Positions 18,745 through 58,000 of a stretch of DNA of 64,000 bases are shown piece by piece (the stretch's first letter is position 1; each line of letters opens with the position of its first letter). Under the pieces are notes generated by a model. It ran no database searches. It was not told the DNA's origin and saw nothing but the letters and a program-made list of their open reading frames with translations. Origin of the DNA: Bryum argenteum (Eukaryota; Streptophyta; Bryopsida; Bryales; Bryaceae). The DNA lies in the NCBI GenBank assembly GCA_037043015.1, contig CM073328.1, forward strand, positions 2,281,409 to 2,345,408, given 5' to 3'. A program made the position numbers and the translations under genes.

Positions 18745-18935
18745 CAAGACCGGCGGTCGTCTCTTCTGGACCGGCGGTCGCCTGAGCTACCGACGTTCGC
18801 CCATGAGCTACCGAAGTTCGCCCCTGGGCGACCGCCGATACAGCCGATGGGCGAACGTCGCTCAGTGATGCGACCACCGATCCAGCTGATGGGCAAACGT
18901 AGGTCAGAGGGCGTCCGGCGGTCTACCCTCTTTGA
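18745..18935. repeat. GC-rich GACCGCC/GAACGTCGGTCGC repeat, locus A
   Basis: First of seven loci of a GC-rich repeat in otherwise AT-rich DNA. Two alternating submotifs are seen: GGGCGACCGCCGAT (often followed by CCAGC) and GGGCGAACGTCGGTCGC. Units here are degenerate. This locus forms part of the left arm of the foldback structure. Confidence 0.8.
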
Positions 18936-24100: not shown

Positions 24101-24320
24101 TCCACGGGGCAACCTCGTACACCGGGGTAATGGGGAATTGTGAGGATATCCGAAATGAGCTAATGCTCGTTGCCTTACAAAGACTGTGCTTTTTCCACAG
24201 AATAAGCACACGCGAGTATTTGGCTTGTCGTTCCGCCCGTGGATACTGTAGCCACTCGTCCCCATATGCGAGTGTCTCTTCTATTATCCGGTACCCGTTG
24301 GATTGGGAAGAATGATCCAT
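21159..24320 (-). pseudogene. hAT-superfamily transposase, decayed
   Basis: Reads on the minus strand from about 24320. Order: a BED-type zinc finger (DKPNTRVCLFCGKS...RALAHFG) in the 24265-23717 frame; a frameshift near 23730; then a DUF659-like core (GYQPPSYHAIRTT, CSDGWSDVTSRPLIN, QICTDNASSMLGA) to about 23270; another frameshift; more frames with stops to 22735; and a hAT C-terminal dimerisation block (ILALTCSASSCERNWSMYS, then VRNRLS) in the 22589-21159 frame. Catalytic acidic residues are partly visible (CSDGW, CTDNAS), but the reading frame is broken at several places, so this is not an active enzyme. After the dimerisation block an intact acidic tail of about 350 codons runs to the stop at 21159. 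GC-rich repeat loci lie outside both ends. Confidence 0.85.
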
Positions 24321-35676: not shown

Positions 35677-36139
35677 GCCACCATTAGGAGCGTCAGGGAA
35701 TCTTAGAATGTCTATCGGAATGGGACGTTACTTGGGCGTGAGCGTAGAGCGTAGAGCGTAGAGCGTAGAGCGGAGAATTTCATATTGGAGAGCGGTGGTG
35801 AGAACATTTGTTTGGAAAATTTTTCTAAACATATAAAAATTCTAAATTTTATACAGAATATTCTAGAGAATATTCGAATATTCTTGACTTATTACCGTGG
35901 ATTTGGAACCCAAACCCGTGGAAATGAGGGAAAAAATTCTGAAATTTGGCTAACTTCAACAACATTCAAAAGACATGGAGACACTTATGGTGTGACATTA
36001 CTTAAACAATTTTGTGGACATAGATACTAATATATATTTTTTTTTAATGCTATATTGCAAAATATAGTCACACAACGTGTTAACTACACAGTCTAGGGTT
36101 AAGGGCGAATAGGGAATATAGTGTGGAAAACTATGACAT

Positions 36140-37655: not shown

Positions 37656-40600
37656 TACTAAAAATAGATTTTTTTTTTGTTTTTTTTTTTTTAAGGAGAT
37701 AATAATTTACGTTTATCCCGACTTAATTGTAAAATCGAAATTACTATAACTTGAAATTACCGTAGTAAGCTTTCACTTACTAGTTCCATGAATCCACCCC
37801 ACTGTCTATAGCGGTGATGCCAATACGAAAGCTGTCGGATGCCATGTATTCACTTTATCTTCCCTTACACGTTTATTGGTGTAAAACCCATGTTCAGGTG
37901 ACTCGTGTATCGTTCCACCATTCTCGATTGACCAAGACAAGTAGTGCTAGAACACCCAAACCCACAAACGTTTCCTAGTCCCAACTTATGTTTTAGCATA
38001 GGACCCTAGGGTATCCCTTTGCAAGAGGGGATGCACAAAGACTCTTTCCCTTATGTTTATCGTGATTGAAACTTCCACACTTAAACTCTACACACACACA
38101 CACATTCTAAGGCACACATTAGGATCCTCACAACTAATCCGTCCCTATCCGTCCGAACTAGCAGTCACGCAGCCGTCCCGTTACCCTATCACCCTTTCCT
38201 AAATGATGCCCAACAGCTCCGAATCCGGCTAGAAGACGTCTACACGTAGTCACGCATCGCGCTTAATCCGTCCTCCGAGACTACAGAGAGAAACCCAAGT
38301 CAAGAGCAACTGGAGGCCGGATTGGAATCCGTCCTCACACACCGTCTCCCGAACCTTCCGGCGTGTCTTACATGGTTGTTTTCCTCTTTGAGCACGCATC
38401 CATGGTCCAAAGACACAAGGCACTTTGGAATACGCCCAACCCGACTTCAACTCCAAAGTTGGAGCGATCTAACAAGGAATCTGGATTCCTAACTCCCAAC
38501 TTATAACACACATAGTAGATCCGGCATTCCAAGCACTCAACTTTGGAGACTCTGGAAATGATCACACCAAATATGCGCATAAGAAGGTTTGATTAACACT
38601 CAATGCTTTGGGAATGTTTTAGGTGGCCAAACTTCCACCTATAAGTACTTCTAAGTCAACGACTTAGATCCCTAACTCCCGATTGTTCAGAGGAGCATAG
38701 CCTACATAGAAGCCTACTCCTCAAAAAGCGGTCACGACATTCCCAAAAAGAAAACACTATAAAATGGGCTAGGTCGGATACCAATTGGATCCTAACCCCG
38801 GCCGTCCCGTTAGCCCGTTAGCCCGAGAAGAAGACGTCCTACCTCTTCCTTCGCTAACTAACTCCGGGTGGTCTTCCGCTTCACAAAAGTGTGTCACGGA
38901 ATGCCCCTCAACACTCTCTTGCCCGGGTTATCACGTACTCGACTCGGCTGAGTTAGTCTGAGGAGGGGTGGTCTTCAACTCTTCCTCTTGGAATGCCGAG
39001 GCCGAGGTCGTGTGACTCCATGCTCCGGGGACTTCTCGGATTGGGCCGTGACTTCCTCTTTCTTTGTCACCGTATTCTTGGCCGGAAAGAGAGAGTGCTT
39101 TGGAGCCTGCATCCGAAACATGGGGTTCACCTTCGCCCTGCCAAGCTAGGTCCCGTGATAAGAGTGCGGCCCAAAGATCCGACCTTCTTTGGCTCCGCCG
39201 GAGTCTTGGCATGGAAGAAGTGAAGCCGGCATCACTACCTCCTTCATTGCTCTTGTTGGATGCTCTTGCAGCATCCCGCACCATTGGCGTTGCTCTTCTC
39301 CACTTTCGTAGCGTACGTCTTCGCCGCCAAGAGGAACTTCTTGAATGTCTCCGCCTTGAAAACCTCCGACTCAAAATTCCGGCCTCGAACAAGTTCGCCC
39401 TCTGACTAGTGGGAAGTTGGAAAATGGATACTCGCGCATTTCTACGAGCTTCACGACCGCACCCTTGCCGTGATTACGGCCTGCCATTCCGACCAGGAGT
39501 TCCTCCTCCCTTCTCATGCCCACCGTCTCGTGGGAGTTCCGTCTATTTTCCAGGGACCAGCTTGGTCACTTGCTTCTCCATTTGTCGAAATTGCTCCGAG
39601 TCAAGGTGGAATCCCACTTCACCTTGACCTCCAATAGAACGTCTTCACTCCAAATTCTTGGCATAGCTTCATGCAAGATTTCTTGGTAGAGAAGAAATCG
39701 GCACCTGCTACCAACTGAAGTGGTGCCATGCTTCGCCTCATGGGATCCGGGTGATTGGCGGACGGAAAGAAGTGGGGAAGTCGAGGTCGTTGGATTCATG
39801 GGGTTCTCCCAATCGGCCGTAAATTCCCCTTCATCTACCGGCCAAGGTCTCCGTGCCTCGATCCATGAGTTCCGGCCTCGGTCGGATTCGTCCGGGAGGG
39901 ACGGGGACGGAAGGATGATTACCTGCGATCGCATGCAATGGTTAGGTTGCCTCCGAGCCGCTCTTGAGGTCGTCGGGTGGAACGCCCCTTCATCTCGATC
40001 CGACCTCGCCCTCCTCCTCATCGTTGACACGGCCTCGCTATCCGTCTCTCCTCCGATTGAATACGCCGTTGTTTTGCGGCGACATCCGCGCGATCTCATA
40101 GTTCGACTCCTCCTCATCCGTCCAACCTCCTCCTTCTTAAAAATGAAGACTTAAAGAAAAGGAGTAATAGGGCTAGGACGGGTTTTACCTACGTTCTCCA
40201 TACGCCGGGCGACCAAGTCGCGGATGATCATCCCCGATCCGTCTCTCGTTGCCACGCAAGGAACCCAAATTGTTGGCCATGTACTTGAAATGAGTAGATG
40301 CGATTCTCCCCGTGAATAATCGGTTCAAGAACTTGACATCTATCAAAGCTCCCTCAAGTTCTTACAATCTTCTATTGAGTAGCCGTTGTGCATCTGCGGA
40401 TCTCCGTGAACGAATATTACCTACTACGTTTCCGCCGTCAACCAAGACAATTTTGGAAATTGTTGCTCTCCATCTTGCCGTCCGTCAAATGCCGGCTTCC
40501 CTCTAACTCATCCCCTATCATTTGACGTGCGCATCTACCTTGATCTCCAACCATCTCATGGTGCTCGCAAAACCCTGGCGCGTATCACAAAAGCCGGCTA

Positions 40601-42184
40601 ATCCCATCCTCTCGAAATCTTCCGTCAGGTGGCTTCTTTGGTCCTCCTCGGGAATGCATGGTGACACGAGATTAGATGGAGAAAAGAAGAGAGGAAGAAG
40701 GAAGACAAGATGAAGACAAGGAAATCGGAAAAGAAGAAGAAGAGAAATAGAGGTCGGATGGCTTGGAAGTGGTCTCTACTTTTTAATTGCCATTCCTTCG
40801 TCTTAAGTCCAAAAGACGGACGGGCGGGCGCAAGAGCGACAAGGGGAAAGCGAGGAGGCAATGTGCACCCGCCCCTAAAATCTCAAATATCGAAGATCAA
40901 CGAGTTAAGTCCGACCATCATTGACTATGGTCGGCCATTTGTACTTCCCGCCGGGGAAAAGATTTCAACACCCCATTTATTTTATTCTTCGCCACTCTAC
41001 AACCTTTACCTACATCATGCTTTATAATCCGGAAAGCTCTACTGGAGCTCTATCTAGTGTAGAAATCTCAAAGGAGTTGAAGAAAAATCGAGTGAGTTAA
41101 TGGGGAAACAATTTTAGCTAAGTCCTTTATTTGTAAAAAGCTAATTGCCTTATAACAAAGGAACTTAACAAATACATAGGTCGATTCTAAACACTATACT
41201 TATTCTTAATGATTAGAACATAATGGCCAAAAATCGAAAAAACGGGTCCGACAAAAGCCATAGGCCTAGGTGGTAGAGGCCATTCTCGGAGGTGGCGTTT
41301 GAGGATGACCAACACGATCATTTTGCCAAACACCGGGTCTCTCCTTCTCCTAACGGATGAACGAGCATCAACTTGATCATTTTGAGAGGGGCCCGATGTT
41401 GACTTGCTTGCAATTCAAGAAAGATGTACTTCTTGGTATGAGTTTCTAATGATTGCGTCCCAATGAAAGTAACAAGTCCTCCTAACTTCCATGGAAATTG
41501 AAGGATCTCCGAACAAAATGGAACGATCCGCAGGCCCAAGGCCTTCCTTTGGCTTGAGCAACCTAAACCAAGAAAAATGGAAACTTAGTTTTGGGTACTT
41601 CTGCCTAGCCAACGTGGTTGGGATTCCTCCGGAAGACAAGTTGAGCTTGAGATCTTGATTGAAAATAACATGCAATGGTTAGAATGCTAACTAAGGCATT
41701 GGGTCGAATGACCGGCACGCCATGGTAGTCCATGGCTTCACTCCATGACATGGTCAAACATCATCCATGCATTGGAGAGGTCGCGCCTCCATGCTTGCAT
41801 CCGGGTTACAAGGTCGAACCTCTCAACAACCAAATTTCAAATCTTAAAAATGAAGACTTTATCGACTCGTCCCTTGGCCGGGGAACATGTTAAATTTCAA
41901 CGTAACTCCAAGTCCCTAATCCTCTTAGCTAATCAAACCATGCCATCACTAGGATGCCAAATCTCTAGTCCTTCCTACTTGAAAGAATAGATACGATTCC
42001 GGGCTTGGAGAGTTCAAGAGTTTACATCGAACAAAGACTCCTAAGTTCTTCAAGAGTTAGGTGTCCGGATTTGGGGTCATCTTCCTCGCGTAGAAGAATG
42101 TTACCTACTATATACCTATTGCATCTCAAGACAATTTTCAAATTGTTGCAAATTACCTCAACATGTCATGGATTAACTCATCTA
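37656..42184 (-). mobile_element. decayed retroelement block (LTR-like sequences and broken ORFs)
   Basis: Begins with a T-rich tract (37670-37695). 37770-38930 has the texture of an LTR/leader. Minus-strand frames at 40117-39566 (LLYQEILHEAMPRIW, LTRSNFDKWRSK) and 39392-38931 (ending TTPPQTNSAESST) lie to its right and look like Gag/accessory remnants. Two diverged copies of one sequence occur at 40290-40510 and 41990-42180 (AGATGCGATTC/AGATACGATTC, CAAGTTCTT/TAAGTTCTT, ATATTACCTACTA/ATGTTACCTACTA, CAAGACAATTTT), possible LTR or leader fragments. No pol domain is seen. It separates the two transposase pieces. Confidence 0.35.
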
Positions 42185-43445
42185 TCATTTGAATAAAAAT
42201 CTATAGTCTCCGACTTTGACAGGGTGCTCGTGGGTACCGATATGCACACATGCACGCTCTTGAATATCATCTCCAAAGACGTAGAAGATTTTGGCAGACA
42301 CAAAGCAACGCAGATCGGAGGTTCTCTCGCAAATCTTACGGACTAGGGTGGACGATGAGGGAGGCGGTTCACTTACCGAGAAAGGTTCTTTGGTGATACC
42401 TTCAAACTCCACCTCATTGACTACCGTCGCACGATCCGGCGTTCAAAGAAAGGGCACTTGTCATTGTGGCATTGGAGATGACCCACGCAATTTGAATATC
42501 GAAATGACAAGCCTGTGGTGTTGCTGATGTTAGTTGTCATCGTCCTAGTCCGACATGTCCGTCATACCGTTTGTCCATCCCTTCCATTGATCTTGCATTT
42601 TTGAGTACAAATGGAAGGAAGTGCCGGGGAGGACATATAGGGCATCTCCATTAAAAGATGGAGGCGAAAAGGATACAATGTGAGTAGGGATGGAATTGAA
42701 ATCTAGTTTCTTGAGTATATTCTTGCTACCGGGCATGCTACCAAGTTTGCGTAGACATGGAAGAATGTTTTTGGGTTTTCTGTTTGAGAGGATGGTGAGG
42801 GAGAGGCTAAGAATAGGGGGCGTTGATAGAAAAGAGTTCTCGAGAAATAGAGGAGATGGATGGAAGCTTGGCAGAAGAACGACGGGGTGGAACCGATGGC
42901 TTTCGTTCGTCATCGGATGAATCTGATATATCGATACTAACACGCTTGCCTGGTTCGATCTTGACACGAGCAAAGAGGGGACCAACGTTAGAGATCGTGG
43001 AGGAGCTACGAGGTGTTAGAAGTTGAGTGGAGGCGTTCATAACCGACTCTGTCAAACCGTATAGGCGATACTTTCCTAACTTCAGCTTCCACATGGTAGC
43101 GTTATTATCTAAGACGACTGGTTCTACAACCGTGGAGTACAGGACATGATAAGTTTGAGGATCAAGAACGTCGGTTTCTAACCACAATCTGGATACATCA
43201 TAGCCAAAGCGAATTGCAAGCCAAGAAGAGGTTACTTCAGCCACACCATCAGGGCCAGGAGGAAGACAGAGAGGGACATCAGAGGCAACTGACTTAATTT
43301 CGATCAGATCCGGAGAAGGAGGCTCCGTGGTGGAAGCCATGACTTCAGCCACGCCAGGGCGAGGAGGAGGACAAGCGGGGACATCATAGGCAACTGACTT
43401 AATCACGATCAAATCCGGGCAAGGTTGCTGAGAGGAGGAAGCCAT
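42185..43445 (-). pseudogene. probable N-terminal part of the SWIM-type transposase, decayed
   Basis: The minus strand from ATG 43445: MASSSQQPCPDLIVIKSV, an internal duplication of ~45 residues (PDLIVIKSVAYDVP / PDLIEIKSVASDVP), then SSWLAIRFGYDVSRLW and KLKLGKYRLYGLTESVM, and an acidic Ser-rich stretch (SIDISDSSDDERKPS). The frame breaks near 42810; later frames give SIPTHIVSFSPPSFNGD, then LVRKICERTSDLRCFVSAK and ACVHIGTHEHPVKVGDYR, where coding sequence ends at the retroelement block. The assignment to the same transposase as 36140-37655 rests on shared orientation and on my impression that HPVKVGDYR-like blocks occur upstream of the catalytic domain in such elements; treat it as inference. 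Confidence 0.4.
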
Positions 43446-43487
43446 GATTGAAGCTAGTACAAGAGAATGAACGAAGGAGTGGTACAA

Positions 43488-44070
43488 AAGAGATAATGAG
43501 TACCTGCGGCGATGTTTATGTACTAAAATAATGTACTCTTGTAATTAGTAAATGTAAAAAGAGTTGCAAGTTTATCTAGTGAAACATATTCGAAGGGGTT
43601 GACTGTGAGGCTAATATTGGACGCACGAACTCCACAACGTATACGTATTTAAAACGTATCATGTAACCACTTTGTTTAAATATAGAACACACGCATTAAT
43701 TAAGCACTAGTATTAAGATGGTGAAACTAATTAAGGAATTAAGATTTGAATTTGAGACGGAGGCCGCCACTGTCAGAGAATAAGAGCGCCAGAAAGGCTA
43801 CTTGAAAATAGATTAGTATATTGTGTCAGACACGGAATCTGAGTAAAAGATTTTGTACTGCATCGGTGTGCGAAAGTGGCTATGAGTGTTGATGGGTTAC
43901 GCGTTTAGAGTAGTTAGGGTTTAGGAAGAACGACACATCCAAAGAGTATAAAGTCATCGGGTTACAAGAGATATTCCTCTTTGTTTCTGTTGTATGATAT
44001 AGTTGTATATTCAGAGTCACGCTTTTGAGAATATCGTGTCTTAAGAGCGAGGAGTTTGTGATTGTTTGCA
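43488..44070. other. divergent intergenic region, no gene seen
   Basis: AT-rich promoter-type space between the minus-strand gene remnant and the plus-strand gene at 44071. It has no frame of interest. Confidence 0.45.
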
Positions 44071-44873
44071 ATGGAGGGTGATAGTAGTCAAGTCGAGAGA
44101 GGGAAGGATGGAGTACGCGGGAAGAAGAAGAGAAGAGGTGGCATAAAGTTTTCTGGATCGAAAGCATTGCGGCGGAGTGCCATGCGGAAGAAAGATGCGC
44201 CGGATGTGTCTGATGACGATCATATGCAAGACATAGATGAAACGATTGATGAGTTCCTTCCCGGGAGGTTTAGAAGGAATGTAAAGATTCGAACATTGTA
44301 CTTGGACGATGTTACTGAGAATACTGCGGGTGAAGACGAAGAAGAACGGCTTGATTGGAACGAAGGAGTGAAGGAGGTAGAGGCTAGTAAGAAATCGCAA
44401 AGCAGGAGTGGATCTCAAGAATTTGAACGTGATAGCGTGGATAAAGAGTTCGAAAAAGTAGTAAGTATAAATGGGAGTCTGGGTTTGCACAATGTGTTAA
44501 AGTTGATGTGATATACAGTCTTAAATGTTTTAATGGGTTTGTTCAGTGGGATGATATGGAGACATTCGTTGATGACATCTTTGGTGTTCATCCTCAGCAA
44601 TTTGAAGTCGAAACACATGGAGCAACCCAGGAATGTCAAGTGCAAGAACGGAATGCAGTGGATGGCCATGAAGAAAAAGACGAAATGGAATTTGACCCGG
44701 AACGTTTACCGGTACAATTTCCAAACCTTAGACAGGAGGTAGATCTAGGATGTCGACCTGAGTTTATGATTTATGAACACCCTAATGGCTTCATTCAATG
44801 TTGGTTGATAGACAATAATGAGTTCCCTTGGGCCGACCGTGAGGACGTGGACGAAGTAGATGCTGATAGTTAA
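44071..44873 (+). CDS. unrecognised acidic protein, two exons
   Basis: Exons 44071-44460 and 44547-44873 join in phase 0 (donor GTAAGT, acceptor TTGTTCAG) to 238 residues. The N terminus is strongly basic (GKKKRRGGIKF, RRSAMRKK), likely a nuclear localisation signal; then an acidic middle (DDVTENTAGEDEEERLDW) and a C-terminal domain with aromatic and acidic residues (FVDDIFGVHP, EFMIYEHPNGFIQCWLIDN). No known domain recognised. Divergent from the decayed transposase N-terminal piece and only ~0.6 kb from it, so it may be a companion gene of that element. The frame is intact. Confidence 0.6.
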
Positions 44874-46051
44874 CGTGCCACTAGGATGTAGACCCATTGA
44901 AGCCTTTAATTCTACATGTATTAGAACAGAAATTGGATATATTGTGAGAAAAGTCCAATTTATGTGAGACGGTCGCACATAAATAAAGACCATAGCCCAA
45001 CAATTCTTAGATGACATTTTTAGTAGAGAACATTCTAAACTCATATTCGGTGCTATATAAAAAGAAAAATAAAAATAGTGATATCTTATCTATATTGTTA
45101 TGTACGTTACCGAAACCACTCATGTCGCAGTAAATCATCATTTTATTATGTTATACGGCAAACTCCCCATCTAGCACTGTCGTCCACCTGCGTCTTCGAA
45201 CGCCCGGATAGCATAAGACGGCGGCATTGGGAGATAGTCGAATTGAAGCGACATTCACGTACCAAACTCTCTCATCATCAAAGTCATGAAGTCATGTAGA
45301 CTTAAAGGATATAAGTGCGATCAAAAAAACTTCCATCGTGAGCTATCGAGTAAGGTTGTTTATCATTCGCGCTGGTATTATAAAGCTGCGTATGTTTTGG
45401 AGGAATAAAGTAGAAGTGAACTGCTAGTAGCTTCTATGTAGAGTGTTGGCGCACAAAAGCCGTGTCTGGGATATCGGTCTGCGCGCAAAAGCCAGAATTG
45501 TTTGACTTAGTAGCTAGAAGCATATACCTTTAGCACACGGCATTCTAGCAATTCGGTCGAGGATCTGGACTGAACTGCCAGCAGAGGCCGGATTTCCTGC
45601 AGAGTCATCGGAGACGGGCACCAAAGTTACATCACCCTCCCGATCAGATCGTCGACCGCAGATAGTAGACCCCCCGCGTAGGTTCGGAGGTTTGGAGATC
45701 TTAAATGCCAGCGCAGCGCAGATGGCGGGCTGTCTGCCGCATAAGCAGGCTGATGCCGCATAAGCGGGCTGACTCCACCGAGGTGCCGAACTTTATGCAT
45801 GCCTTTCTCGAAAGCGCCGATGGTATATTTTCAGGCTGCGCCTGTTGCAGAGATGAGCGTGACTTTCGTGATAAGGTTCCTAGATATCCTCAGCTGGCTG
45901 TGAGGCTCATGATCGGAGGTCATGTTGAAAACCGAGAACTGCGAAGGAGGTCTGCTTTGGTGCGGGTGGGAGAGATACATTGCTAGAACAAAGTACTATC
46001 ACGGAGAGAGGAATTAATCTTCCTTTCTTTCACTTGCAGTGCGAATCGAAG
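44874..46051. other. upstream region of the ParB-methyltransferase locus, no gene seen
   Basis: Holds a faint GC-rich stretch at 45180-45240 (CGAACGCCCGGATAGCA, AAGACGGCGGCATTGGG) resembling a decayed unit of the GC-rich repeat, and a near-duplicate of GCCGCATAAGC(A/G)GGCTGA at ~45736-45770. A CACTTGCAG splice acceptor at 46031-46039 just before ATG 46052 suggests a 5' UTR intron. Confidence 0.4.
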
Positions 46052-49000
46052 ATGGCGAGGTGCGGAGGGGAGATAACGGCAATGCAGGACCCAAGCCAAA
46101 TCGTTGATGTAAGCGCCCCCTCCACGTTTTTGATCTCTGGGTGGCGAAGGATGTACTGGAAAACCACTGGGAAGTTCAAGGTCACCAAAGTTCAGACAAT
46201 CGCGTCGACGGGCATACGCTTTCCTGAGCAGGTATGTGATGATTATCTTCTCAGAATGTCAGTGCATGCCCGAATTTGAAGCGTCAATGAATTTGAGCTC
46301 GACAATTGAGTCCTGTAGAAGCCGGCTGGTATCCTCGTTTGAATGCAGCCTCGTAGACTCGCAGCCTCGCAGCCTCGCAGCCTCGCAACCTCACAGCCTC
46401 GCAGCCTCGTAGACTTTTTGCATGAGCATTGACATTGACGGATTTGCTCGCGAGATCGGTGTGGTTAGAATATGCTCGCGGAATCCTCGTTCTGTTTTGT
46501 GGTTAGAATGCGAATCTACTCGCTTGTAGCCATGTACAAGCTGGCTGGGAAGATAGGTTGAAGGCATGGCCGAATTCGCAGCCTCTTTCACTTTCAGCGC
46601 TTAGTATGTGTGAACCAGCTGCCTCGTGAATCTGCTCTGTTTGAGTTGTTTCGTCCGCGAAACTACCTTGCTTGAAGCCATGTAGTAGGTTCGTGGGGGG
46701 GACGATGGAAAGCATGGCCGAACTCGCAGCCTCGTGCACTTCCAGCATGAGCATCGAGCTAGGCAGAATTCCCATCCTCGTTGCCCTGGTGGAGATCGGT
46801 GGACCACTTCACCTCGGCACTTTCGTCAACGAAACATCCTTGCTTAAGAATTTTAATACTTCAGATCGGTGTGCTTGAATTATGCTCCCCGAATCCTTGT
46901 TTTGTTCATGTGAGTAGAGTGTGCAAGATCTGCTCGGAGCCCTGTCAAAGCCGGTTGGAACCTCGTTTGAATGCATGGCCGAATTCGCAGCGTTTTTGAC
47001 TTCAGCGAGCGCTGTCTGCGTAGACTAGCTGACTCGTGAATCCGCTCACGTCGAGCACTTTCGTCAACGAAACTACCTATCTCTCTGTGGTTGCAATGGT
47101 TGAGATCTCAAGGCTTAAAATTTGCTCGTGAACCCCCTTTGAATGAGTAGCCCGAATTTGCAGCGTCATTGACTTACAGCTTGACGATTGAGCCCTGTAG
47201 AAGCCCTCTCGATCCTCGTTTGAATGCATGCCCGAATTTGCAGAGTCGTTGCCTTGTCTGGTACTAAAACTACCTTGCCAGAATAAGATCGTGGATCCAC
47301 GTTTGATTGCGAAGCCCGAATTCACAGCGTCATTGACTTTGCGCATGACCATTGAGCCCTGTTAAGCTTTCTGGATCCTCGTTAGTTTCATGCCCGCATT
47401 CGCAGCGTCGTTGCCTTGCCTTAAACTGAAAGTACATTGCCCTCTCTGCGCATCGAATATGCGCATCGAATTCTTATTTTGTGCTTGTCGTTAGAATGTG
47501 AAAGATATGCTCGGAGCCGTATAGAAGCCGGCTTAGATCCTCGTTTGAATATTAGCCCGGATTCGCAGCCCCTTTACTTTCAGCATGAGAATGGAGCGTG
47601 GGCTTGCTGTCTGGGAACCTGCTTACCTCGAGCACTATCTACAGCGAAAGTACATGGCTCCGAGCCTAGCAGATTTCGCAGCCTCGTTGGCTTATTCGAT
47701 ACCTGTGGGCCACCTTAACTCGGCACTTTCGTCAACGAAAGTACCTTGCTCCGCATTTCTTTTGCTTGAGATCGGTGTCCTAAGAATGGGGTCGTGGAAT
47801 CCAAGTTTTGTATTCTGGTTAGAGTGCGAAACTAGCTTGCTCGGACCCCTGTAGATGCTGGCTGGGAGAGAAGTATGAATGCATGGCCGAATTCATAGCT
47901 CTTTGACTTTTAGCGCGATTCCTGCGTGATCTAGCTGCCTCGTGAACCTGCTCACTTAGAGCACTTTCGTCAACGAAACTACACTGCTCCTTAATCCTTA
48001 TGCTTGAGATCTGTGTGCTTAGAATATGCTCGCAGTATCCTCGTTTCGTAATTGTGATTAGAGTGTGCTAGATCTGGTCTGAGCCCTGTAGATGTTGGCT
48101 GGATCCTCGTTTAATGCATGCCGAATTCGTAGACTTTGAGCGGGCCTGCTGTCTCGTGAACTTGCTGCCTCGTGAACCTGCTCACCTCGAGCACGTTCAT
48201 CAACGAAACTAACCTGCACGGAGCCTATTAGAAGCTGGCTGGGAGAGTTTTGTCTTTGCTTCGCCGAATTCGCATTCTCGTACTCTCAGCGAGCGATGTC
48301 TGCATGTTGTAACGGCCTCTTGAACCATCTCACCTCGAGCACCTTCGTCAACGAATGTACCTTGCTCGGAGCCCTTAAGAAGGTGGCTGGGATGGACGGT
48401 ATGAATGGATGTCGCAATTCGCAGCCTCGTAGACTTTTAGCGAGCGCTGTGTAGTAGCGGCCTCGTGAAGCAGGTCTCCTTGAGCACTTTCGTCAACGAA
48501 ACTACCTTGCTCCGCAATCCTAATCCTTGTAATTGGTGTGCTTAGAATATGTTCGTAGAATCCACGTTCTGTAATTGTGAGTAGGGTGTGCAAGATCTGC
48601 TTGGAGACTTGTAGATGTCCGCTGGATCCTCGTTTGATTATTGCCGAATTCGTAGACTTTGAGCGGGCGCTGTCTCGTGAACTTCCTGCCTTGTGAACCT
48701 GCTCATCATGAGCACTTTCGTCAACGAAACTACCTGGCTCGGAGCCTATTAGAAGCTGGCTGGGAGAGTTTTGTCTTTGCTTCGCCGAATTCGCATTCTC
48801 GTACTCTCAGCGAGCGATGTCTGCATGTTGTAACGGCCTCTTGAACCATCTCACCTCGAGCACCTTCGTCAACGAATGTACCTTGCTCGGAGCCCTTAAG
48901 AAGGTGGCTGGGATGGACGGTATGAATGGATGTCGCAATTCGCAGCCTCGTAGACTTTTAGCGAGCGCTGTGTAGTAGCGGCCTCGTGAAGCAGGTCTCC

Positions 49001-49944
49001 TTGAGCACTTTCGTCAACGAAACTACCTTGCCATCTGATTGAAATGAAAGTGATCTGAAGGCTTGGATTCTGCTCGTGGATCCTTGTTCGAATGTGTAGC
49101 AAGAATTCGCAGCGTCATTGACTCTCAGCTCGACCATTGAGCCCTGTAAATGCCGGCTGGATCCTCGTTAGAATGCATGCCCGAATTCGCAGCCTCGTTG
49201 CCTTCCTGTAACTACCTTGCCCTCGTTGGAGATCGGTGTGCTAAAAGTATGCTCGTGGAATCCTCGTGTTATACTTGTCGTTAGAATGTGAAAGTTTTGT
49301 TCTGAGCCCTTTAGAAGCCAGCTGGGATCCTCGGTTGAAACATAGCCCTATGTCGCAGCCTCTTAGACTTTCAGCATGAGAATTGAGCATCGGCTTGCTG
49401 CCTTCTGAACCACCTCACCTCGGGCACTTTCGTCAACGAAACTACCTTACGCTCTCTCTGGTTAATATGTGGAAGATAAATGTATATGCACTTATAGCGT
49501 TTGTATCCGAAAGTAGGAGAATATTAGGTGATTCATATCTACACCTCTTATCATTTCAATATTAACATTATTCTCTTTTCTCTCATCTCCTTGAGAATAT
49601 ACTGACGCTCTGAATTTTTGTTGTGTTTGCTTTTGTAGGAGTCGATTGACATTGAGCCGGAGTTCTCTTCTGTGGAATCTGAGAGCGATAGTGCTACGTC
49701 TAGCACGCGAACTAGAGTCTTAGATGTAGAGGTTAAACGCACGGTGGTTCGAGCACTTCCAGCTGCTACTATAGATACTAACACCGACTACGTTCAATCA
49801 ACATTGACTGCTCCTGTGACTGTTGTTGAAGATCAACGAGCTACTTACATGAAGTGCTGGAGGGCGCGTCGTAGGCAACTGCGCTTGGAAGCTCAAGCTC
49901 AAGCGAGACTTTGCCCACGACGTTCTAAGAGGATTGCGACCTAG
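46052..49944 (+). CDS. 5' exon plus alternative short terminal exon (161-residue product)
   Basis: Exon 46052-46231 (60 codons: MARCGGEITAMQDP, FLISGWRRMYWKTTGKFKV) ends CAG|GTATGT in phase 0. A TTTGCTTTTGTAG acceptor starts an exon at 49639, also phase 0, which runs 101 codons to TAG 49942-49944 and ends in a basic tail (RARRRQLRLEAQAQARL, PRRSKR). The intron between them (46232-49638) is almost entirely repeats. The same 5' exon can equally join the exon at 50115 (acceptor TTGCGCAG, phase 0), which begins with a similar peptide (SIAPLSSESD against SIDIEPEFSSVESESD). So this is either a separate short gene or an alternative, truncated isoform of the ParB-methyltransferase gene. Confidence 0.45.
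46310..49450. repeat. repeat array with conserved TTTCGTCAACGAAA hairpin
   Basis: About 3.1 kb built from irregular units of ~250 bp. Recurring phrases: CGTTTGAATGCATGGCCGAA, TTCGCAGCCTCGT, GACTTTCAGCGAGCGCTGT, GAGCACTTTCGTCAACGAAA, ACTACCTTGCTCGGAGCC, TAGAAGCTGGCTGG. The core TTTCGTCAACGAAA (stem TTTCG/CGAAA, loop TCAA) is intact at about 46823, 47061, 47725, 47965, 48488, 48717, 49010 and 49429, with variants between. A 10-bp GCAGCCTCGC microrepeat sits at 46350-46410. The array lies inside the proposed first intron of the ParB-methyltransferase gene. Confidence 0.85.
48221..49032. repeat. 290-bp near-identical segment repeated at 521-bp offset
   Basis: 48221-48511 and 48742-49032 are the same sequence, from GAGCCTATTAGAAGCTGGCT to CGTCAACGAAACTACCTTGC, with essentially no differences seen by eye. 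This is a recent duplication inside the older array. Confidence 0.9.
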
Positions 49945-50162
49945 TCTAGCTAAATTTTAACAGTCTACTTTAATTTTAGCTACTGACATCATACATTACC
50001 ATGAGACGTAAAGACCAAAGTTCATGTTGTCTTTATTTATAATTTATGTTGCTTCTCTATTTCTATTTGAGTTTTCATTATTGATTACTAAGTATCTTCG
50101 GTACTCTTGCGCAGACCCCTCTCTCGATTGCCCCGCTGTCATCTGAGAGCGATCCCACCGAC

Positions 50163-53100
50163 ATGGCAACAACTGACGGTTGTGACGCGGGACAGCAGTC
50201 ATGTTCGCCATTGACTATCTCTCCAAGCCGCCAACTCACATCTCAATCTCCAATTGCCGAAGACGATGACGATGACATTCAAGAGATTGTTCCGGGTACA
50301 CAGTGTTTGCGCGACATTGATGCAGTTGACGAGATGAACACATTTACGGTAGCTGCGTCTCCAACTGTAAGATCTGCGAGGGAATCTCCTTCTCTCCCAG
50401 ATACTTTGGAGGTTGGGGTTGTTGAAATGCCAAGTCATTTGGCAGAGATGGATCCTATGTGGAGCGCCGACGAGTTACGAGCTCAACAAAAGGGAAACTC
50501 AATCAACACTATATCGAGATTGCGAATCAAACCAGTCGAGAAATCTCGACTTCGAATTCCCCTCTGTCGCCTCTCATGTTACCCCAAGGTACGTCCTATC
50601 ATAGAAACAGATGTTTGCAAGTTGGCAAACGAGTTTGTCAAAGGATACAGAGAGGGCGATCGTGTTCTTTATGTTTCCCCCTTCAGCAAGAACGGTAAGC
50701 AGCGGTTGGTGAAGGACGATGATGCCGTTTGGAATAACCCTCATTGGAAAGCGGCCAATGATCGGTTTGAATCCTTATTGCAAGCCGATCTGGACCTTTG
50801 CCAATTCAGTGGCAAATACTTCTACGTCTACGAGGGGAATCATCGCGTCACTGCTTGGATGCGGTACATCGAGCAAATGCGCAGAGATGATCCGGATTGG
50901 TATTTCTTTGTCGACTGCATTGTCCTTGACGGACGTGCGGAATACAAAGTACTAATCGACGCTATGAATGACATCAACTGGTGAGTTCAATTTCATATCA
51001 TATTCATTATCTGTAATCTTTTGTACACAAACTGTATTTCTTTAGTAACTCACTTTCTGAACAGGTCCACAGAGCATGATCATGTAGAAGATAGTCTGCC
51101 ATCGAGGTTGCAACGCATGCGCAAGTTTGGCAAGATGCCACTTGAGGAATGGAAACCCCTGATCTCTCCTGAGGACTGGAAGTACTGTTACACTGCAAAA
51201 GATAAGCTTAGACCAACTTGGTACTTTGTGACAAAGGACGTCTTCATCAAGTTTCTATATGCGGTGCGTCTTTAATCATACCTTCAGTTCGAATTATTGT
51301 CAACTAGCCTATTTACATTCTCTAACATGCGTTCTTTGATCGTCCAGAGGCAATGTGCAAAGGTTGCCGACGAAGCCCAAGCCCAGTACTATGAGGATAC
51401 TCCCGTAAACGAGAGGACAGCGCAAGGAGTTTGGACGGCCATGGACGATGCTCTTAAGGCTGAGATCAAACGAATCCGACAAAAGGATTTCGACAAAATG
51501 CTTGCCATTGCTAATCCAGAGTTAGGAAAAGCATTTGAGCAAGAGGTATGAATTCAATCGACCAAACTTAGTGTCTTCTCTCGATCCCTTGTCCATCCCT
51601 CTATTTAAATTCATAATCTCTTTGTTGTGTATCGATGCAGATCAATCTCCATTATAGCCGTCAGAAGGATCCCGAGATGTCTTTGGAGCGCCTCCAAAAG
51701 GTTGCCACCACCAACGTTTCGAAGGAAGTGAAAACAATGTGGCTTCGTTGGTGGAACAACACTCCGACATTCCGACGTAGTGTTCGCTTTCCGGACCCGG
51801 TCGAGATGAAAGACAGGGTGTTGGAGGCATGGCTTGCTCGTGCAGCATTGTGGTCCCAGGTACTTCATATCTACTCAATCACATGCCTTACAACATTTTG
51901 CACATACCATTCTCTGATGTAGTTTACTAACTTAAATCGTTGACCGCAGTTAGCGGCGTATCTGAAGGAGGAGGTCGACAAGTTCTTCAAACAAGAGATT
52001 CCCCAAATTCCGAACTTTGACGCAATTATGATGCCCGAAGAGTACGTCGAGAAATGGCGACTTCTTTTATGGGACAAGGCTTTTCATGCTTATGTAGGAC
52101 CCAAAGCCAGCCCTAAGTTCCTTAAAGGCTCCCACATCGACAAGATTGGCGGCGGTGCTCAAACTAAGAAGCGATTGATGTTCAGGTTCGAGCACGCCGT
52201 TTCGTTTTGTCTATTTTCTTATCATCAAATTCTTCCAAATGATTCTAATTGCTTATACTTTTGTAGGTATATCAAACAAGAGCTCGTTGCTAAGGGAGGT
52301 CTCGCTACATTGGGCATTCCATCGGAGTTCCAAGTCCCGTACTTGAAAAAGAAACCGATGTCGATTTTTTCCAATGATCAGAGGCAGCGGTTCAAGATGG
52401 CTCTACTGTTGACTGGTGGTTGGTTCCTAGAGTCTCAAACCCACCATGTTCATAAGGATGAGATGCATCTTCTGCAGTTATCGGAATCGGGCGACGCCGC
52501 TCCTGTGCAACTACAGGATGATGATGATGACGACGACTTCTACATGCTTCCGGGTGCTCCACCACCACCCCCCCAGCTGCACTTAAAGGTAGAGGAGATG
52601 CAGGTGGCAGCCGCAAACGTCGCAAGAAAGAGCCTACCCCTGAGCCAGAGGAGGAGAAACGAGAAGAGGAAGAGGAGGAGCACGAAGAAAATGACGAAGA
52701 AGACGACGGAGAGCATGGAGATGTTCCCATTCCGGATGAGCTTGCAGGTGGTGCAGATTCAAATGTATGTAAGTTACCTTTTTCTTATGTACATTGTTAT
52801 TTATGTAACACATACACTTCTGTATTCATTGCAGTTCAAAGAGAAGTTGATATGACACAAGCTTCCCAAGGGACGGTTGTCAACAACGGTGGGCAAGGTG
52901 TAAGAGGTCTAACTGCCTCAGAGAGGCAGCCAGTTCTGCCACAAAGGCAGGGTCGAGGGTGGACCCAAGCATCTCAGGGTGGGGTTTCGAATGTGGGATC
53001 TACTCCTCCATCGTCGTCAGCCCCTCGTGAATCCCCTCTGTCTCATGGACTGACCCAATCTCATGGACCCATGCGTCCCATAGTCATTCCCAAAAATTTG

Positions 53101-54336
53101 GGTAGTACTTCATCTTCTCCTACGAATGTGACGCTCCCTATGTTCCTAGAGAAAGGAGACACGGCGGCCTTGGTTCAGCAGTCTACAAAGGGTGCAGGCT
53201 GGGTAGACGCTATTCAGGCTATGGTACAACACATCAAGAAGGTGAATCCCTCTCTATCAAATCATTGCTTTCTTTGAGTAGTTACTCTATACTGCTCTTT
53301 GGTTTCTAATTACTTTGTGTCTAATCCACAGATTGGAAAGGGTAGGGACTACCCTTGCGAGAAGATGGAATACAAGCCCAATCACCCCGGGATTGACCTT
53401 ATCTTTGCAGACGTCCCGGAGAACTTGCCTGTGCTTGGTGTCTCGCCGGACGCAGTTCCCGACTGGAACAAACGACCGTTGTATTACTTCGAGTCTGTGT
53501 TTGTCTTTGCCTCATACCATTTGACTGACCTTGGGACTATCCTTATTATGCACCCCAAGGACGTCAAAATTGACCGCATCCTACACGATCGAGCGAGTAC
53601 TTACAATTTCCGGCTTATGCGAGAGTGGTGGGCCTATAACCCCCTTCCTTTGGTTAGACCTGGCGCTGCCGCAAAAGAGGTAAACTTCAAATATTGCACT
53701 TGATTTAGTCTTTGTCTCATTTCAGCATTACGTTTACTAAATTTAAATTGGTTATTGCAGACCCATAACTTTATCATCAAGGTCTATGCTCGTAAGGACT
53801 TCGTGAAGTTGTTCAATATACGGCAGGTGGCGCAAGCATACGCAGGAGTCGCGATCATACCTGACGATGATGACATGGTCAGTAACTTTGCTGATGCGAG
53901 TTCCATTACCTACCGCACTAACGGGAAGCCGTGGCGTGGCGCACGTGAGAAGGATCCGTCGTTTTTGCAATGCTTCGTAGATTGCCTCACGGACGATGGG
54001 GGAATCGTGTTTGACTTCAGCGCTAGTACAGGTAAAAATTTAAGTCCCCATTTATAATAAGTTTGCAAATTCATATTTTCAATACTCATGTGGATTTCCA
54101 AATGTGCAGGTGCTTCTATCATCGCATGTGCACGCTCCAATCGACACCTTGTTGCTTTCGAAGCAGATGAGGAGATTTTTGATGGGCTCTTGGCCACCTT
54201 CAAACACCCTAAACCGATGGAAGAAGAAAGTGGAGAATCAGCATCTGGCGACGATTACGACTCCGATGAACCGTATCTGAAGAAGCCTCGCACTTATATT
54301 GGTGTGTACTCTTTTGAATTCAATGACTTTTTGTGA
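50163..54336 (+). CDS. ParB-like domain fused to beta-class DNA N4/N6-methyltransferase-like domain
   Basis: Exons 50163-50980 (open upstream to an acceptor at 50115), 51065-51263, 51348-51545, 51641-51859, 51950-52185, 52267-52768, 52835-53241, 53332-53679, 53761-54031, 54110-54336. All are GT-AG and the phases agree, except that exon 52267-52768 needs one extra base at a C7 run (52568-52574); with it the protein has 1141 residues. Residues ~131-256 resemble ParB/sulfiredoxin-like domains (LCRLSCYPKVRPIIETDV, then YEGNHRVTAW). A low-complexity acidic/Gln-rich linker follows. The C-terminal ~280 residues fit a circularly permuted MTase: motif IV region IDLIFADVPENLP (887-890 DVPE instead of DPPY/SPPY), then GTILIMHPKD, then motif I DFSASTGASIIACA (1061 on) with NRHLVAFEADEE. 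ParB-MTase fusions are known in phages and bacteria. With DVPE, catalysis is doubtful; base or DNA binding may remain. Confidence 0.7.
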
Positions 54337-54386
54337 TTTCAATGTCCGTACTACTTTCAGAGCATTGACTGGTTATAATTATTTAG

Positions 54387-54640
54387 ATATGCAGTGTCAT
54401 GGGCCAAGGCCTCGTTGATAAGCTCGGCTGTTCACTCGCTATTAATTTTATAAATAGAACTTCGGCAGTAGAGCTAAAGTATAGCCTCGGCAGTAGAGCT
54501 AAAGTATAGCCTCGGCAGTTGAGCCAAGAGATTAGTATATAAGGGACTCTTATTCATTGTAAACCTAAGTCTTGGATCAATATATTTCTTTTGCAGTTTT
54601 TGCTTGTTTTGACAGCTAGACTCTTACATAATCCAAGACT
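54387..54640 (+). mobile_element. 5' LTR-like region of Ty3/gypsy element 1
   Basis: A TGTCATGGGCC start, three copies of a 25-bp unit (CTCGGCAGTAGAGCTAAAG) at ~54461, 54486 and 54511, and a TATATAAGG box at ~54537 followed by CATTGTAAACC. Position directly before the gag of the plus-strand element supports an LTR. The 3' border is unclear and no second LTR is in the window because the element is cut at 58583. Confidence 0.4.
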
Positions 54641-55099
54641 TCTCTTGATTTTCTGAAGGGCTTCATCCTCCCTTGTTTTTTCAAACGTCAAAAGTAGGAC
54701 ATTGATTAGATTGAGGAACTTATCCACCCTCGTGGTAGTGATTGAAGATAGCCACAGAACCGGGACGCATTTGAAGGCTTTGCGAAGCCTGAAGAGTTGA
54801 TTGAGAGGTGTTGCTTTTTGAGATGGAGAACGCCCAGATGATCGATGATGAGATCTTGCGGCGGCAGCAGCAGCAGCGCAAGGAGAAATTACGGCGGAAG
54901 ACTATCAACGAGAGATCGTGAGGTTGCGCACACACTTCAAGCTTCTCGCCAGTCGAGAAGTTGGCTATCGAGCGATTGGTTGCACAACATCGCCGCAGGT
55001 GGCTCCAGCGGCTGGACAATTCACGAGTTTAGGAGGTCCGTCTTCATCGCAGATGATGCCGCAATCGATGCAGTAACAATATGGAGGAACTGCCGTCGC

Positions 55100-58000
55100 A
55101 TTGCGCAAGCGATTGCCAGAGATTTCAAAGTTTGACGGGAGTCGCAAGGGCTACCCGATATGGAAGGTCGAAGCAGATAACAAGCTTCAATTGATGGAGT
55201 CTGATTTTGGTACACCTCAAGATCAAGCCGCATACTTGTTTTCGAGGATGGACGCGAAGGCGCAGATGATGGTAGTATCTTTCTACCAAAATCAACGTGT
55301 TTGCAATGCGGCGACTTTTATTCAACATCTTGACAAATTTACATCGACCCGAATGCAAAGAAATGCTGGCATTGAATCGGCTTCAAGCAATGAAGCGGGG
55401 GGAGTCATTCGCAACATTCTTGCCCAAGTTTGAGAAGGAGCTTGGTGAGAGTCAACTTACCATGGTTCCGGATATCGTGAAGATAGGATATCTTCGCGGT
55501 GCTCTCAACTCAGAGATGCAACGCGCGATGATTGGACCTGTGACGTACATCGATTATGGTATGTTTGTCCAAGCTTTGTTGGCGGTCGGCTCTCAACTTG
55601 ATTGCTTGCAATATCAGAAGGGTCGTGCAGCTCCGATCGCGACATCAAGTCGCGTATGGCCAGATGGAGATGAGATGGATTGGATACCAACAGTCCAAAT
55701 AAGCAAGCTTCGGAGACGTCTGACTTTGGAGGCTAGAAACAACAACGGTGTCGCCAAGAGGGACGCTGTTTTTTATGTTTGAAGCGAGGCCACCGTGCAA
55801 ATGACTGTTCATCCAAGCAAGGTGAAGGCAATGAGAAGAAGAAGAAAGAGAGCGCGGACAAAACTTCGATAGTGCGCGCAGTGAGAAAGAAGAGCAATGT
55901 CAAGATAGAGGAGGTCAAAGAGATGGAGAGTTGTGACTCTGATGTAGAGTCGGAAAACAAGCAGCTTCCGGCATAAGACTCAGTCGGAGGCGTGGAGGTA
56001 GGTTGTCAAAGTTGAAGAATCTAGGAGACAGCTTAGACACGGATGGTATGTATGTTGATGTTTTAATAAACTCAATTATATCTACTCGTGCTTTGTGTGA
56101 TTCTGGATGCCAATGCTTTGCAAATCGTATGCGAGCAATTTGTTCGACGGAGAGGGTTGGATGCGTCATCTATTCAACCTAGATCTTTGGAGCAAGTTAC
56201 GACAATGAAGAAGCGGCCTATGATTTGCCAAATTGCAAATTTTATGGCCGATATTGATGGTATGGAGGAGAAGATTGTTGCCTATGTTATTCCAGGACGA
56301 TAGATGATATAATCTTGGGAAAAGGTTGGATGGAGCGACATGATGCAAGTGTGTTCGACCACTAAAGAAGAGGTTTGCATTCGAAAACCTTTCAAGATGA
56401 TTGTGAAGACTCGACCGATTACGTTGGAGCCAATGCAAGAGATACATGCATCGATGATTCAAACTTTGCGGAGGCGGTGAACCAAGAGAGGTTTTTAGTG
56501 CCACTTGGTTGACATCCGTAAGGCACTACAAATGTATGTGTATAGGGACCCGCACAACATGCTCCCCGATCGACTCATGCCAATTATTGACGCTTTTAAT
56601 CGACAAGATGCAAAGTCGTTGCCCCCGCATAGGAAAGGGGTTGATCACGAGATCAATCTTATTGAAGGGAAGACTAATGATGACATCCCTGCCATGCCGC
56701 CGATCGGATGTCAAAGGATCAATTATTAGTTTTGCGCAAGACCCTTACGGAGTTGTTGGATAATGGATTTATTCGCGTAAGTAATTCACCAGCAGCACTC
56801 GGTCATATTTGTGAAGAAACCTGGCGGAGGATTGCGATTCTGTGTTGACTATCGGCGATTGAACGAGATGAGTCGGAAGGACAGCTATCTGATTCCGCGC
56901 ATTGATGAGACGTTAAGATCCATTGCTGCAGCCAAATATATCTCCAAGGTTGATGTAATCTCTGCGTTTCATCGGATACGTGTGAAAGAAGGTGACGAGT
57001 GGAAGACGGCGTTCAAAACACGCTTTCGCTTATATGAGTGGTTGGTCACACCGTTTTGACTGACGGGCGCACCTGCAACTTTTCAGCGATATATCAATTG
57101 GATACTTCGCGACGAATTGGATATATGCTGCTCCGTATATATTGATGACGTGGTGATCTATAGTGATACTCAAAAAGAATATCGTGATGCAGTTCTCAGG
57201 ATCATCCGTAAGCTTGCTAACGCAGGGCTTCAACTTGATTTTGATAAGAGCGAGTTTGAAGCAGACACTATTAAGTATCTTGGATATTTGGTGAAGACCG
57301 GTTGGGGTTTGCAGGCTGATCCAGGAAAACTTGAGGCAATTCGTCAATGGGAGCCGCCAACAAAAGTGAAAGGAGTTCGTGGATTTTTAGGTTTCTGCAA
57401 TTATTATCGACAATTCATAGATGGATATTCTAACATTGCAGAACCTCTTACTCGACTAACGCGGAAAGATCAACCTTTCCATTGGACATTGAAATGTCAA
57501 CATGCCTTTGATCGATTGAAGGAGGCATTAATTCATGCGCCGGTGCTCGTTAAATGGACTTCAGGTTTGGAAACAACCATTGAATGTGATTCCTCTGGTT
57601 ATGCTGTTGGTGGCACCTTAATGCAAAAGGTGGACGGATTTTGGCATGCGGTTGCTTATTTCTTGAAGAAACACAGTCCAACGGAGTCCAATTATCCGAT
57701 TCATGACAAGGAAATGCTAGCAGTTGTACATTGCATCCGCGAGTGGCGTACATTACTTGTTGGCCAACATTTTGAAGTGAGTTCAGATCATCGCAATTTG
57801 GCTTATTTTCAGAAGAAGCAACATTTGAGCGAGAGGCAAATGCGTTGGGCCTACGAGTTGAATGATTTTGACTTTGAGATCGTGCACAAGCCTGGCAAGG
57901 ATCAAGTTCAATCGGATGCACTTTCTCGTCGGGAATGGGATCTTCCCAACACGCAGATGATGATCGAATCATGAATCGATATCATCGACTTTTGGACGGA

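What the first reader, a model, noticed from the sequence alone, without database searches (positions are those of the whole stretch)
50115..54336. Intron-rich plant gene fusing a ParB-like domain to a permuted DNA methyltransferase-like domain
Seen: ten exons with GT-AG borders whose phases agree; an N-terminal YEGNHRVTAW block in the style of ParB/Srx domains; and a C-terminal pair of blocks in the order of beta-class N4/N6 DNA methyltransferases (motif IV region before motif I), ending in DFSASTGASIIACA...NRHLVAFEADEE. Known: ParB-MTase fusions occur in phages and bacteria; I know of none described as a spliced plant gene. Inferred: lateral acquisition followed by intron gain, or the gene of an unrecognised eukaryotic mobile element. 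This is my main candidate for a new system.
Basis: partly seen in the sequence, partly recalled or inferred. Interest (0 to 1): 0.88.

Follow-up and report, generated by a model that had tools for sequence, protein, structure and literature searches.

The report
Transposon gene with ParB-like, methyltransferase-like domains
The finding is a decayed copy of a gene carried by a large, very numerous jumping element; it joins a bacterial-style DNA-clamp-like domain to a methyltransferase-like domain, a pairing already reported in algal transposons, and here it sits beside repeated mirror-image DNA sites that it might bind.

Summary
The ten exons are real, but this is no single host gene: it is the accessory gene of a large DNA transposon family. 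Siblings at 82-100% DNA identity recur in the genome; first-look candidates number 1101 for the ParB domain (150 scored, 150 match) and 2077 for the methyltransferase part (143 scored). The one sibling read at both ends is 16.0 kb, with inverted ends and a 9-bp target duplication; opposite-strand ORFs look Mutator-like, but Pfam finds nothing. Exons are under purifying selection (pN/pS 0.11-0.51). The window copy is broken: a frameshift in a poly-C run, and an LTR-type insertion before the last exon. A ParB-like fold and beta-class methyltransferase homology are supported; catalytic motif IV is degenerate in 12 of 12 sequences. A palindromic core lies just upstream in 26 of 29 siblings, recalling VANDAL/VANC anti-silencing. 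Such proteins are already reported from brown, green and red algal transposons (PMC12477816 passage): a new variant of a known kind; the mechanism is inferred.

The parts
35722..35775 (.). left terminal inverted repeat of the transposon (GGGACGTTACTTGGGCGTGAGCG, then GAGCGTA heptamers)
   Evidence: boundary with sibling L043; matches the reverse complement of the sibling right end over 39 bp at 92%; sibling left against right end: local score 35.5, maximum of 500 shuffles 19.5
35722..54394 (.). transposon as far as it is seen in the window; the right end was not found in the window
   Evidence: collinear with sibling loci L043, L009, L044
36143..37609 (-). C-terminal part of the transposase-like gene (SWIM-like CxC...CxH; AES..N motif)
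   Evidence: ORFs, one longer ORF in sibling L043 888-2507; no Pfam hit; motif names recalled
37833..41250 (.). insertion (TGTCGG...CCGACA ends) inside the transposase-like gene of this copy
   Evidence: absent in sibling L043
41251..43544 (-). N-terminal and middle part of the transposase-like gene
   Evidence: ORFs; sibling L043 2508-4871; 42 matches from 40 scored of 711 candidates
44062..44873 (+). small plus-strand gene of the element, function unknown
   Evidence: ORFs conserved in L043
46000..49560 (.). non-coding tandem-repeat region with palindromic sites TTCGT(CA/TG)ACGAA
49639..49944 (+). last coding exon of another gene of the element (ends TAG)
   Evidence: pN/pS 0.47 in 31 copies, stops in 10; acceptor AG in 32 of 34
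50163..50980 (+). exon 1 of the finding: ParB-like domain (GNHR = GxxR P motif)
51065..51263 (+). exon 2 (most constrained, pN/pS 0.11)
51348..51545 (+). exon 3
51641..51859 (+). exon 4
51950..52185 (+). exon 5
52267..52768 (+). exon 6; frame broken at a poly-C run near 52565-52575 in this copy; acidic linker downstream
52835..53241 (+). exon 7, low-complexity linker
53332..53679 (+). exon 8, methyltransferase-like half with degenerate motif IV (DLIFADVPENLPV)
53761..54031 (+). exon 9, motif X/I region (PWRGAREKD...VFDFSASTG)
54110..54301 (+). exon 10, end of motif I and motif II region; donor GT at 54302
54395..57971 (+). LTR-type retroelement that cuts off the last exon (Ty3-type reverse transcriptase/RNase H at 57060-57971); its second LTR was not found in the window
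   Evidence: that the two ends belong to one element is inferred

Best explanation
It is the accessory gene of a giant (about 16 kb) Mutator-like DNA transposon family that has spread and diversified widely in this genome. The product (about 1,200 aa) has a ParB-like N-terminal domain, a middle region of unknown fold, an acidic and low-complexity linker and a beta-class N4/N6 DNA methyltransferase-like domain with a non-canonical catalytic motif. Most likely it acts in trans on its own kind of element: it binds or clamps on the palindromic sites just upstream of the gene and keeps the element accessible (anti-silencing or transposition support), the methyltransferase-like half serving as a DNA- or base-binding module rather than as a normal methyltransferase. 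Shown here: movement as a unit, high copy number, purifying selection, the two domain homologies, the recurring palindromic core. Inferred: binding to the sites, anti-silencing, loss of catalysis. The window copy itself is defective.
For: Repeats in the same genome. Unit boundaries: the sibling at C2:34499470-34515493 has TIR-like ends and a 9-bp flanking repeat CAGTGTCCC. Selection: pN/pS 0.11-0.51 in ten coding segments, seven introns differing at 0.16-0.26 of sites. ParB-like: AlphaFold2 model of homologue P0019 pLDDT 81, pTM 0.75, order beta-alpha-beta-(insert)-beta-alpha-beta-alpha; 11 of 27 members match phrog_1033 ParB-like (best E 0.0027; the next family matches 3); that model searched over the genome gives 119 weak matches, 53 of them inside the 150 listed family loci where 0.04 is expected. 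Methyltransferase-like: PF01555 E 0.0022 and phrog_8769 E 2.3e-5; divergent relative L059 (40% over 75 aa) passes the PF01555 cut-off, 28.5 vs 26.7 bits, and matches DpnA (PDB 5hfj) at E 4.7e-4. Linked order: of 38 listed methyltransferase-exon loci of at most 73% identity, 10 have a listed ParB match 1.5-3.5 kb upstream and 0 have one within 10 kb downstream. Palindromic core: 11 sites of the 23-mer in the window against 0 in 100 shuffles; 11-base core in the roughly 1-1.5 kb upstream of 26 of 29 siblings, and in none of the 12 downstream 900-base stretches that read by mistake.
Against: No ParB hit in Pfam or PDB; P0019 itself matches no PHROG; fold search was never open. The model for the window's own exon is poor (pLDDT 61), and three of the five models for P0019 scored 57 or less. 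Only the motif X/I half of the methyltransferase matches profiles. The transposase-like ORFs match no Pfam family. Three of 29 siblings lack the 11-base core upstream, and L037 shows none in 2.6 kb. The exact 23-mer occurs in only 3 elements. No binding, expression or methylation data.
Confidence: 0.53

Rival explanations
1. The protein is an active self-methylating enzyme: the ParB-like part finds the element and the methyltransferase part writes 4mC or 6mA on it, as proposed for the algal relatives in PMC12477816.
For: Same domain pair and arrangement opposite a transposase (passage); motif X/I homology to DpnA in relative L059; exon 8 under purifying selection, pN/pS 0.32.
Against: Motif IV, placed by order, reads D-[VAL]-P-[ED] instead of [DNS]PP[YFW] in 12 of 12 readable sequences: the window and 7 siblings and 4 homologues. 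Motif I lacks the first Gly of GxG. The canonical motifs are recalled.
Confidence: 0.2
2. The gene is a host gene captured passively (Pack-MULE-like) with no role for the transposon.
For: Mutator-type elements of plants are known to carry captured gene pieces (passages of PMC13317346).
Against: Low pN/pS across many diverged copies; 128 of 150 scored exon copies without a stop (hand count). No single-copy donor gene was seen, but the searches list repeats and were not built to find one.
Confidence: 0.07
3. The protein serves transposition itself, for example target choice or end synapsis, with no role in silencing.
For: It lies next to a transposase-like gene.
Against: The recurring palindromic sites are internal and are not the terminal repeats.
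Confidence: 0.2

Closest known systems
ParB-like/DNA methyltransferase accessory protein of Sola1-1_Ec32 (Ectocarpus) and the green/red algal relatives mentioned there (PMC12477816, passages read; its references 50 and 51 are not held)
   Same: Giant DNA transposon, gene opposite to the transposase, over 1,100 aa, ParB-like plus N4C/N6A methyltransferase-like domains
   Different: Here the element looks Mutator-like with a 9-bp target duplication, not Sola1; catalytic motif IV is degenerate; palindromic sites upstream; very high copy number. Sequence homology to the algal proteins could not be tested
VANDAL elements and their VANC anti-silencing proteins, Arabidopsis (PMC5735166, passages read)
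   Same: Mutator-type element with transposase plus accessory genes; short motifs in fast-changing tandem repeats of non-coding parts
   Different: No sign of VANC homology was seen; VANDALs are called non-TIR MULEs (PMC13317346 passage), here the ends are inverted repeats; function untested
Phage/prophage ParB-N6_N4 methyltransferase fusions (PMC12704722, passages read)
   Same: Domain pair: ParB fold plus PF01555-type methyltransferase
   Different: Spliced, transposon-borne, eukaryotic; no tblastn hit of homologue P0019 in 50,697 phage records at E up to 10
TET/JBP-carrying DNA transposons of fungi (PMC12730594, passages read)
   Same: DNA transposon carrying a prokaryote-type DNA-modification enzyme
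   Different: Different enzyme family and hosts

Membership tests
ParB-methyltransferase transposon accessory proteins (algal) | ParB-like domain | tested here: met
   GNHR fits the GxxR P motif named in PMC12704722 (passages); weak sequence support only, no Pfam/PDB hit
ParB-methyltransferase transposon accessory proteins (algal) | N4/N6 methyltransferase domain, C-terminal | tested here: met
   homology only:
ParB-methyltransferase transposon accessory proteins (algal) | in a giant DNA transposon, opposite strand to the transposase | tested here: met
   16.0 kb in one sibling; transposase-like ORFs on minus, gene on plus; transposase identity not confirmed by Pfam
ParB-methyltransferase transposon accessory proteins (algal) | sequence homology to the Ectocarpus or red algal proteins | not testable with these tools
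   those sequences were not at hand
Mutator-like elements (MULE) | target duplication of about 9 bp | tested here: met
   9 bp CAGTGTCCC, 1 of 1 sibling read at both flanks; the defining size is recalled
Mutator-like elements (MULE) | MULE-type DDE transposase domain | tested here: inconclusive
   no Pfam match for the four transposase-like ORFs given; catalytic-type spacing and SWIM-like CxC..CxH are recalled motifs
Active N4/N6 DNA methyltransferase | motif IV [DNS]PP[YFW] | tested here: not met
   DVPEN, DAPDG or DLPEG in 12 of 12 readable sequences; position inferred from order
Active N4/N6 DNA methyltransferase | motif I FxGxG | tested here: not met
   D-x-x-A-S-T/S-G, first Gly replaced
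Canonical ParB | ParA partner, HTH and C-terminal dimer domain | not tested
   no Pfam match in the 653-aa N part; not examined further
VANDAL/VANC | VANC protein homology | tested here: inconclusive
   no Pfam match of part A, only PF01555 in part C; whether Pfam holds a VANC model was not checked
VANDAL/VANC | motif arrays in non-coding tandem repeats | tested here: met
VANDAL/VANC | sequence-specific loss of silencing in trans | not testable with these tools
   needs experiment

The most novel reading that the evidence does not exclude
A clan of Mutator-like transposons has turned a phage-style ParB-methyltransferase into a nucleotide-switched DNA clamp that loads on parS-like palindromes inside the element and protects or marks its own copies against silencing, with the methyltransferase half converted into a non-catalytic reader.
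Probability: 0.25. Interest if true: 0.85.

Novelty: new variant of a known kind. Interest (0 to 1): 0.6.

Why it matters
It shows the ParB-methyltransferase transposon proteins, published for a few algal elements, in a Mutator-like element with over a thousand first-look candidate places in one genome, together with a candidate binding site that recurs upstream in 26 of 29 siblings. That makes it directly testable whether such proteins bind and modify or protect their own transposon, and whether ParB-type clamps work on DNA in eukaryotes.

Tried and rejected
A 50-nt intron covering the poly-C run was considered, which would keep the frame; rejected because its donor reads GT in only 14 of 34 siblings (GC in 14) and 16 of 30 rows have an in-frame length without any intron. 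An 8-bp target duplication was first read from the L009 sibling; reading further into the flank showed 9 bp. A viral origin: no relative of the ParB exon in viral contigs (only one peptide pattern was used, 8 stretches met it, none confirmed) and none in 50,697 phage records. A homologue search with 653 aa found nothing; the exon-sized query found 30. L060 reads as a different, unrelated methyltransferase class (by eye). Two counts of mine were mended on re-checking. One search took the first 900 bases of each sibling locus as upstream although minus-strand loci are stored unturned, turned rightly, gives 26 of 29 instead of 14 of 29. The pairing counts: one search used a hand-picked ParB list; one search used all listed ParB places but left out five of the 38 listed methyltransferase places; with these five the result is 10 of 38 within 1.5-3.5 kb upstream, 12 of 38 within 10 kb upstream, 0 of 38 downstream. 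Because of the mended upstream count I raised the confidence of the best explanation from 0.50 to 0.53, the novel case from 0.22 to 0.25 and the interest from 0.58 to 0.60, and lowered the rival confidences of passive capture and transposition-only slightly. The genome-wide ParB Pfam search (PF02195) and the plant-marker search (PF01698) did not complete, so the host group is untested.
Full report
1. What was checked. The ten exons of the finding exist, with GT-AG borders and introns of 66-95 nt. The likely start is ATG 50163. The ParB exon finds 30 homologous ORFs in public sources with 40-91% identity to it; those that reach its end stop at or a few residues beyond the same NDINW-type border. 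Two corrections matter. Exon 6 is out of frame in this copy: over 30 rows (window and 29 siblings) the length across the poly-C run falls into the three frame classes as 16, 8 and 6; the in-frame class is the 16, and the window is among the 8. And the gene goes on: four siblings continue after ATATGCAG into a last exon, while the window has an LTR-type element from 54395 whose second LTR was not found in the window.

2. It is part of a transposon. A 30-base exact probe hits six places. The 2071-base probe gives 41 matches from 40 scored of 399 candidates, 82-100% identical except one 81-base piece at 76%. The neighbouring minus-strand stretches are repeated too: 40 matches from 40 scored of 678 candidates, and 42 from 40 scored of 711. 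Comparison with the sibling on C2 (L043, L009, L044) gives a unit from window 35722 to beyond 54394. In that sibling it runs from C2:34499470 to 34515493, 16.0 kb, with inverted ends (local score 35.5; 500 base shuffles reach at most 19.5) and a 9-bp flanking repeat CAGTGTCCC. Only this one sibling was read at both flanks. The minus-strand ORFs of L043 and the window have the look of a Mutator-like transposase with a SWIM-like end; that is my reading of recalled motifs, and Pfam gave nothing.

3. Selection. Against 24-34 siblings per segment, pN/pS is 0.26, 0.11, 0.20, 0.18, 0.21, 0.37, 0.49 (acidic part), 0.51 and 0.32 for the covered coding segments of the gene, and 0.47 for the separate upstream exon at 49639-49941; introns differ at 0.16-0.26 of sites. 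Per segment 6 to 19 copies carry a stop and 3 to 15 a frame-changing indel, so many copies are dead. All comparisons share the window copy and are not independent. Exons 9 and 10 were not in this count.

4. The ParB-like domain. Sequence support is weak: Pfam none, PDB none. In favour: with homologue P0019 as query and 26 further rows, AlphaFold2 gives pLDDT 81 and pTM 0.75 (two of five models near 81, the others 57, 43, 42) with strands and helices in the order expected for ParB/Srx (order recalled); with the window exon as query it gave only 61 and 0.55. The window's N part has phrog_1033, ParB-like partition protein, as its best PHROG at E 0.046. Eleven of 27 family members match it (best E 0.0027; P0019 matches nothing). 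The same model run over the genome gave 119 matches with E 0.008 to 1; 53 lie inside the 150 listed family loci, 0.04 being expected. EGNHR fits the GxxR P motif described in PMC12704722 (passages). Fold search was never open.

5. The methyltransferase-like domain. PF01555 at E 0.0022, below its cut-off, phrog_8769 at 2.3e-5. A search of the genome with PF01555 gave 15 matches, 2 over the cut-off; one of these, L059, is 40% identical to the window protein over 75 aa, passes the PF01555 cut-off on its own and aligns with DpnA at E 4.7e-4. Another match, L060, belongs to an unrelated class. Only the motif X/I half matches profiles. The motif IV half was placed by order and reads DVPEN in the window and seven siblings and DVPEN, DAPDG, DLPEG, DLPEG in P0031, P0033, P0034, P0035: in none of these 12 is it [DNS]PP[YFW]. 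Motif I keeps the Asp and the second Gly but not the first. Catalysis is therefore doubtful, but this is a prediction.

6. Scale and linkage. P0019 has 1101 first-look candidates in the genome; all 150 scored match, and by hand count 128 of them have no stop. The methyltransferase part has 2077 candidates, 143 scored, 303 matches. Of 38 listed methyltransferase-exon places of at most 73% identity, 10 have a listed ParB place 1.5-3.5 kb upstream, 12 within 10 kb upstream, and none within 10 kb downstream; only part of the ParB candidates is listed, so this is a lower bound.

7. The palindromic sites. Between the small plus-strand gene and the finding lies a 3.5-kb tandem-repeat region. The 23-mer TTTCGTCAACGAAACTACCTTGC occurs 11 times with up to 3 mismatches, all within 46649-49450, against none in 100 shuffles; the exact form GCACTTTCGTCAACGAAACTACC occurs 10 times in the genome, all in three elements. 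The 12-base core TTCGT(C/T)(A/G)ACGAA counts 10 in the window array, 1 in the rest of the element and 0 in 44 kb of the window outside it; 14 and 6 in two close siblings; and 1, 0, 0 and 0 in the stretches read of the diverged siblings L040, L039, L041 and L037. The 8-base core counts 7, 1, 1 and 0 in L039, L040, L041 and L037; in L039 it lies in an array of 9.6 units of 210 bp. In the stretch (0.95-1.5 kb) before the aligned part of 29 sibling loci, turned to the gene's strand, an 11-base core is present in 26 and absent in L020, L033 and L034. The 12 minus-strand loci that one search had read at the wrong end have it in none of their downstream 900 bases. Not each site is part of a tandem array. 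That the ParB-like protein binds these sites is inference.

8. What is known. PMC12477816 (outline, passages and two of five parts of the reference list read; [quoted passage not shown] The two works it cites are not held. PMC5735166 (passages) shows VANC proteins removing silencing through short motifs in tandem repeats of VANDAL elements. PMC12704722 (passages) reports ParB-N6_N4 methyltransferase fusions as frequent in phages and enriched in prophages. My searches of the held papers for ParB with moss, bryophyte, Mutator or plant transposon showed no Mutator-like or land-plant case in the rows listed (10 of 101, 10 of 315); subscription papers are mostly not held, so this does not show that none is in print.

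9. Verdict. Real, not an artefact, but neither a host gene nor a categorically new system: a new variant of the algal ParB-methyltransferase transposon accessory proteins, in a Mutator-like element, with a probably altered catalytic site and a candidate binding site. The window copy is defective.

Noticed in passing
window 49639-49944: Coding exon of a separate element gene just upstream (pN/pS 0.47 over 31 copies); its earlier exons, perhaps across the tandem-repeat region, were not found.
   Followed up: partly
window 44062-44873: Small plus-strand gene inside the transposon, conserved in sibling L043; only sub-threshold Pfam matches.
   Followed up: partly
window 18826-20051: Large near-perfect inverted repeat (arms 93-99% complementary), a foldback-like structure.
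   Followed up: no
window 21162-24280: Minus-strand ORFs that look like a hAT-type transposase (by eye, no family search).
   Followed up: no
window 60645-63340: Second Ty3-like gag-pol stretch on the minus strand close to the LTR-type element at 54395 (by eye).
   Followed up: no
window 37833-41250: Insertion with TGTCGG...CCGACA ends splitting the transposase-like gene of this copy.
   Followed up: partly
L045 23-1956: Another copy (L021) of the same transposon ends directly beside sequence of the L008 copy on C5, suggesting insertion of one copy into another.
   Followed up: no
G000 contig C1: C1 holds 50 of the 150 listed ParB-family places and the largest share of the matches; it is also the largest contig seen and may be transposon-rich.
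   Followed up: no
G000:C1:1924683-1925207 and L059: Relatives that appear to lack one of the introns of the methyltransferase part (between exons 8 and 9; between exons 9 and 10).
   Followed up: partly
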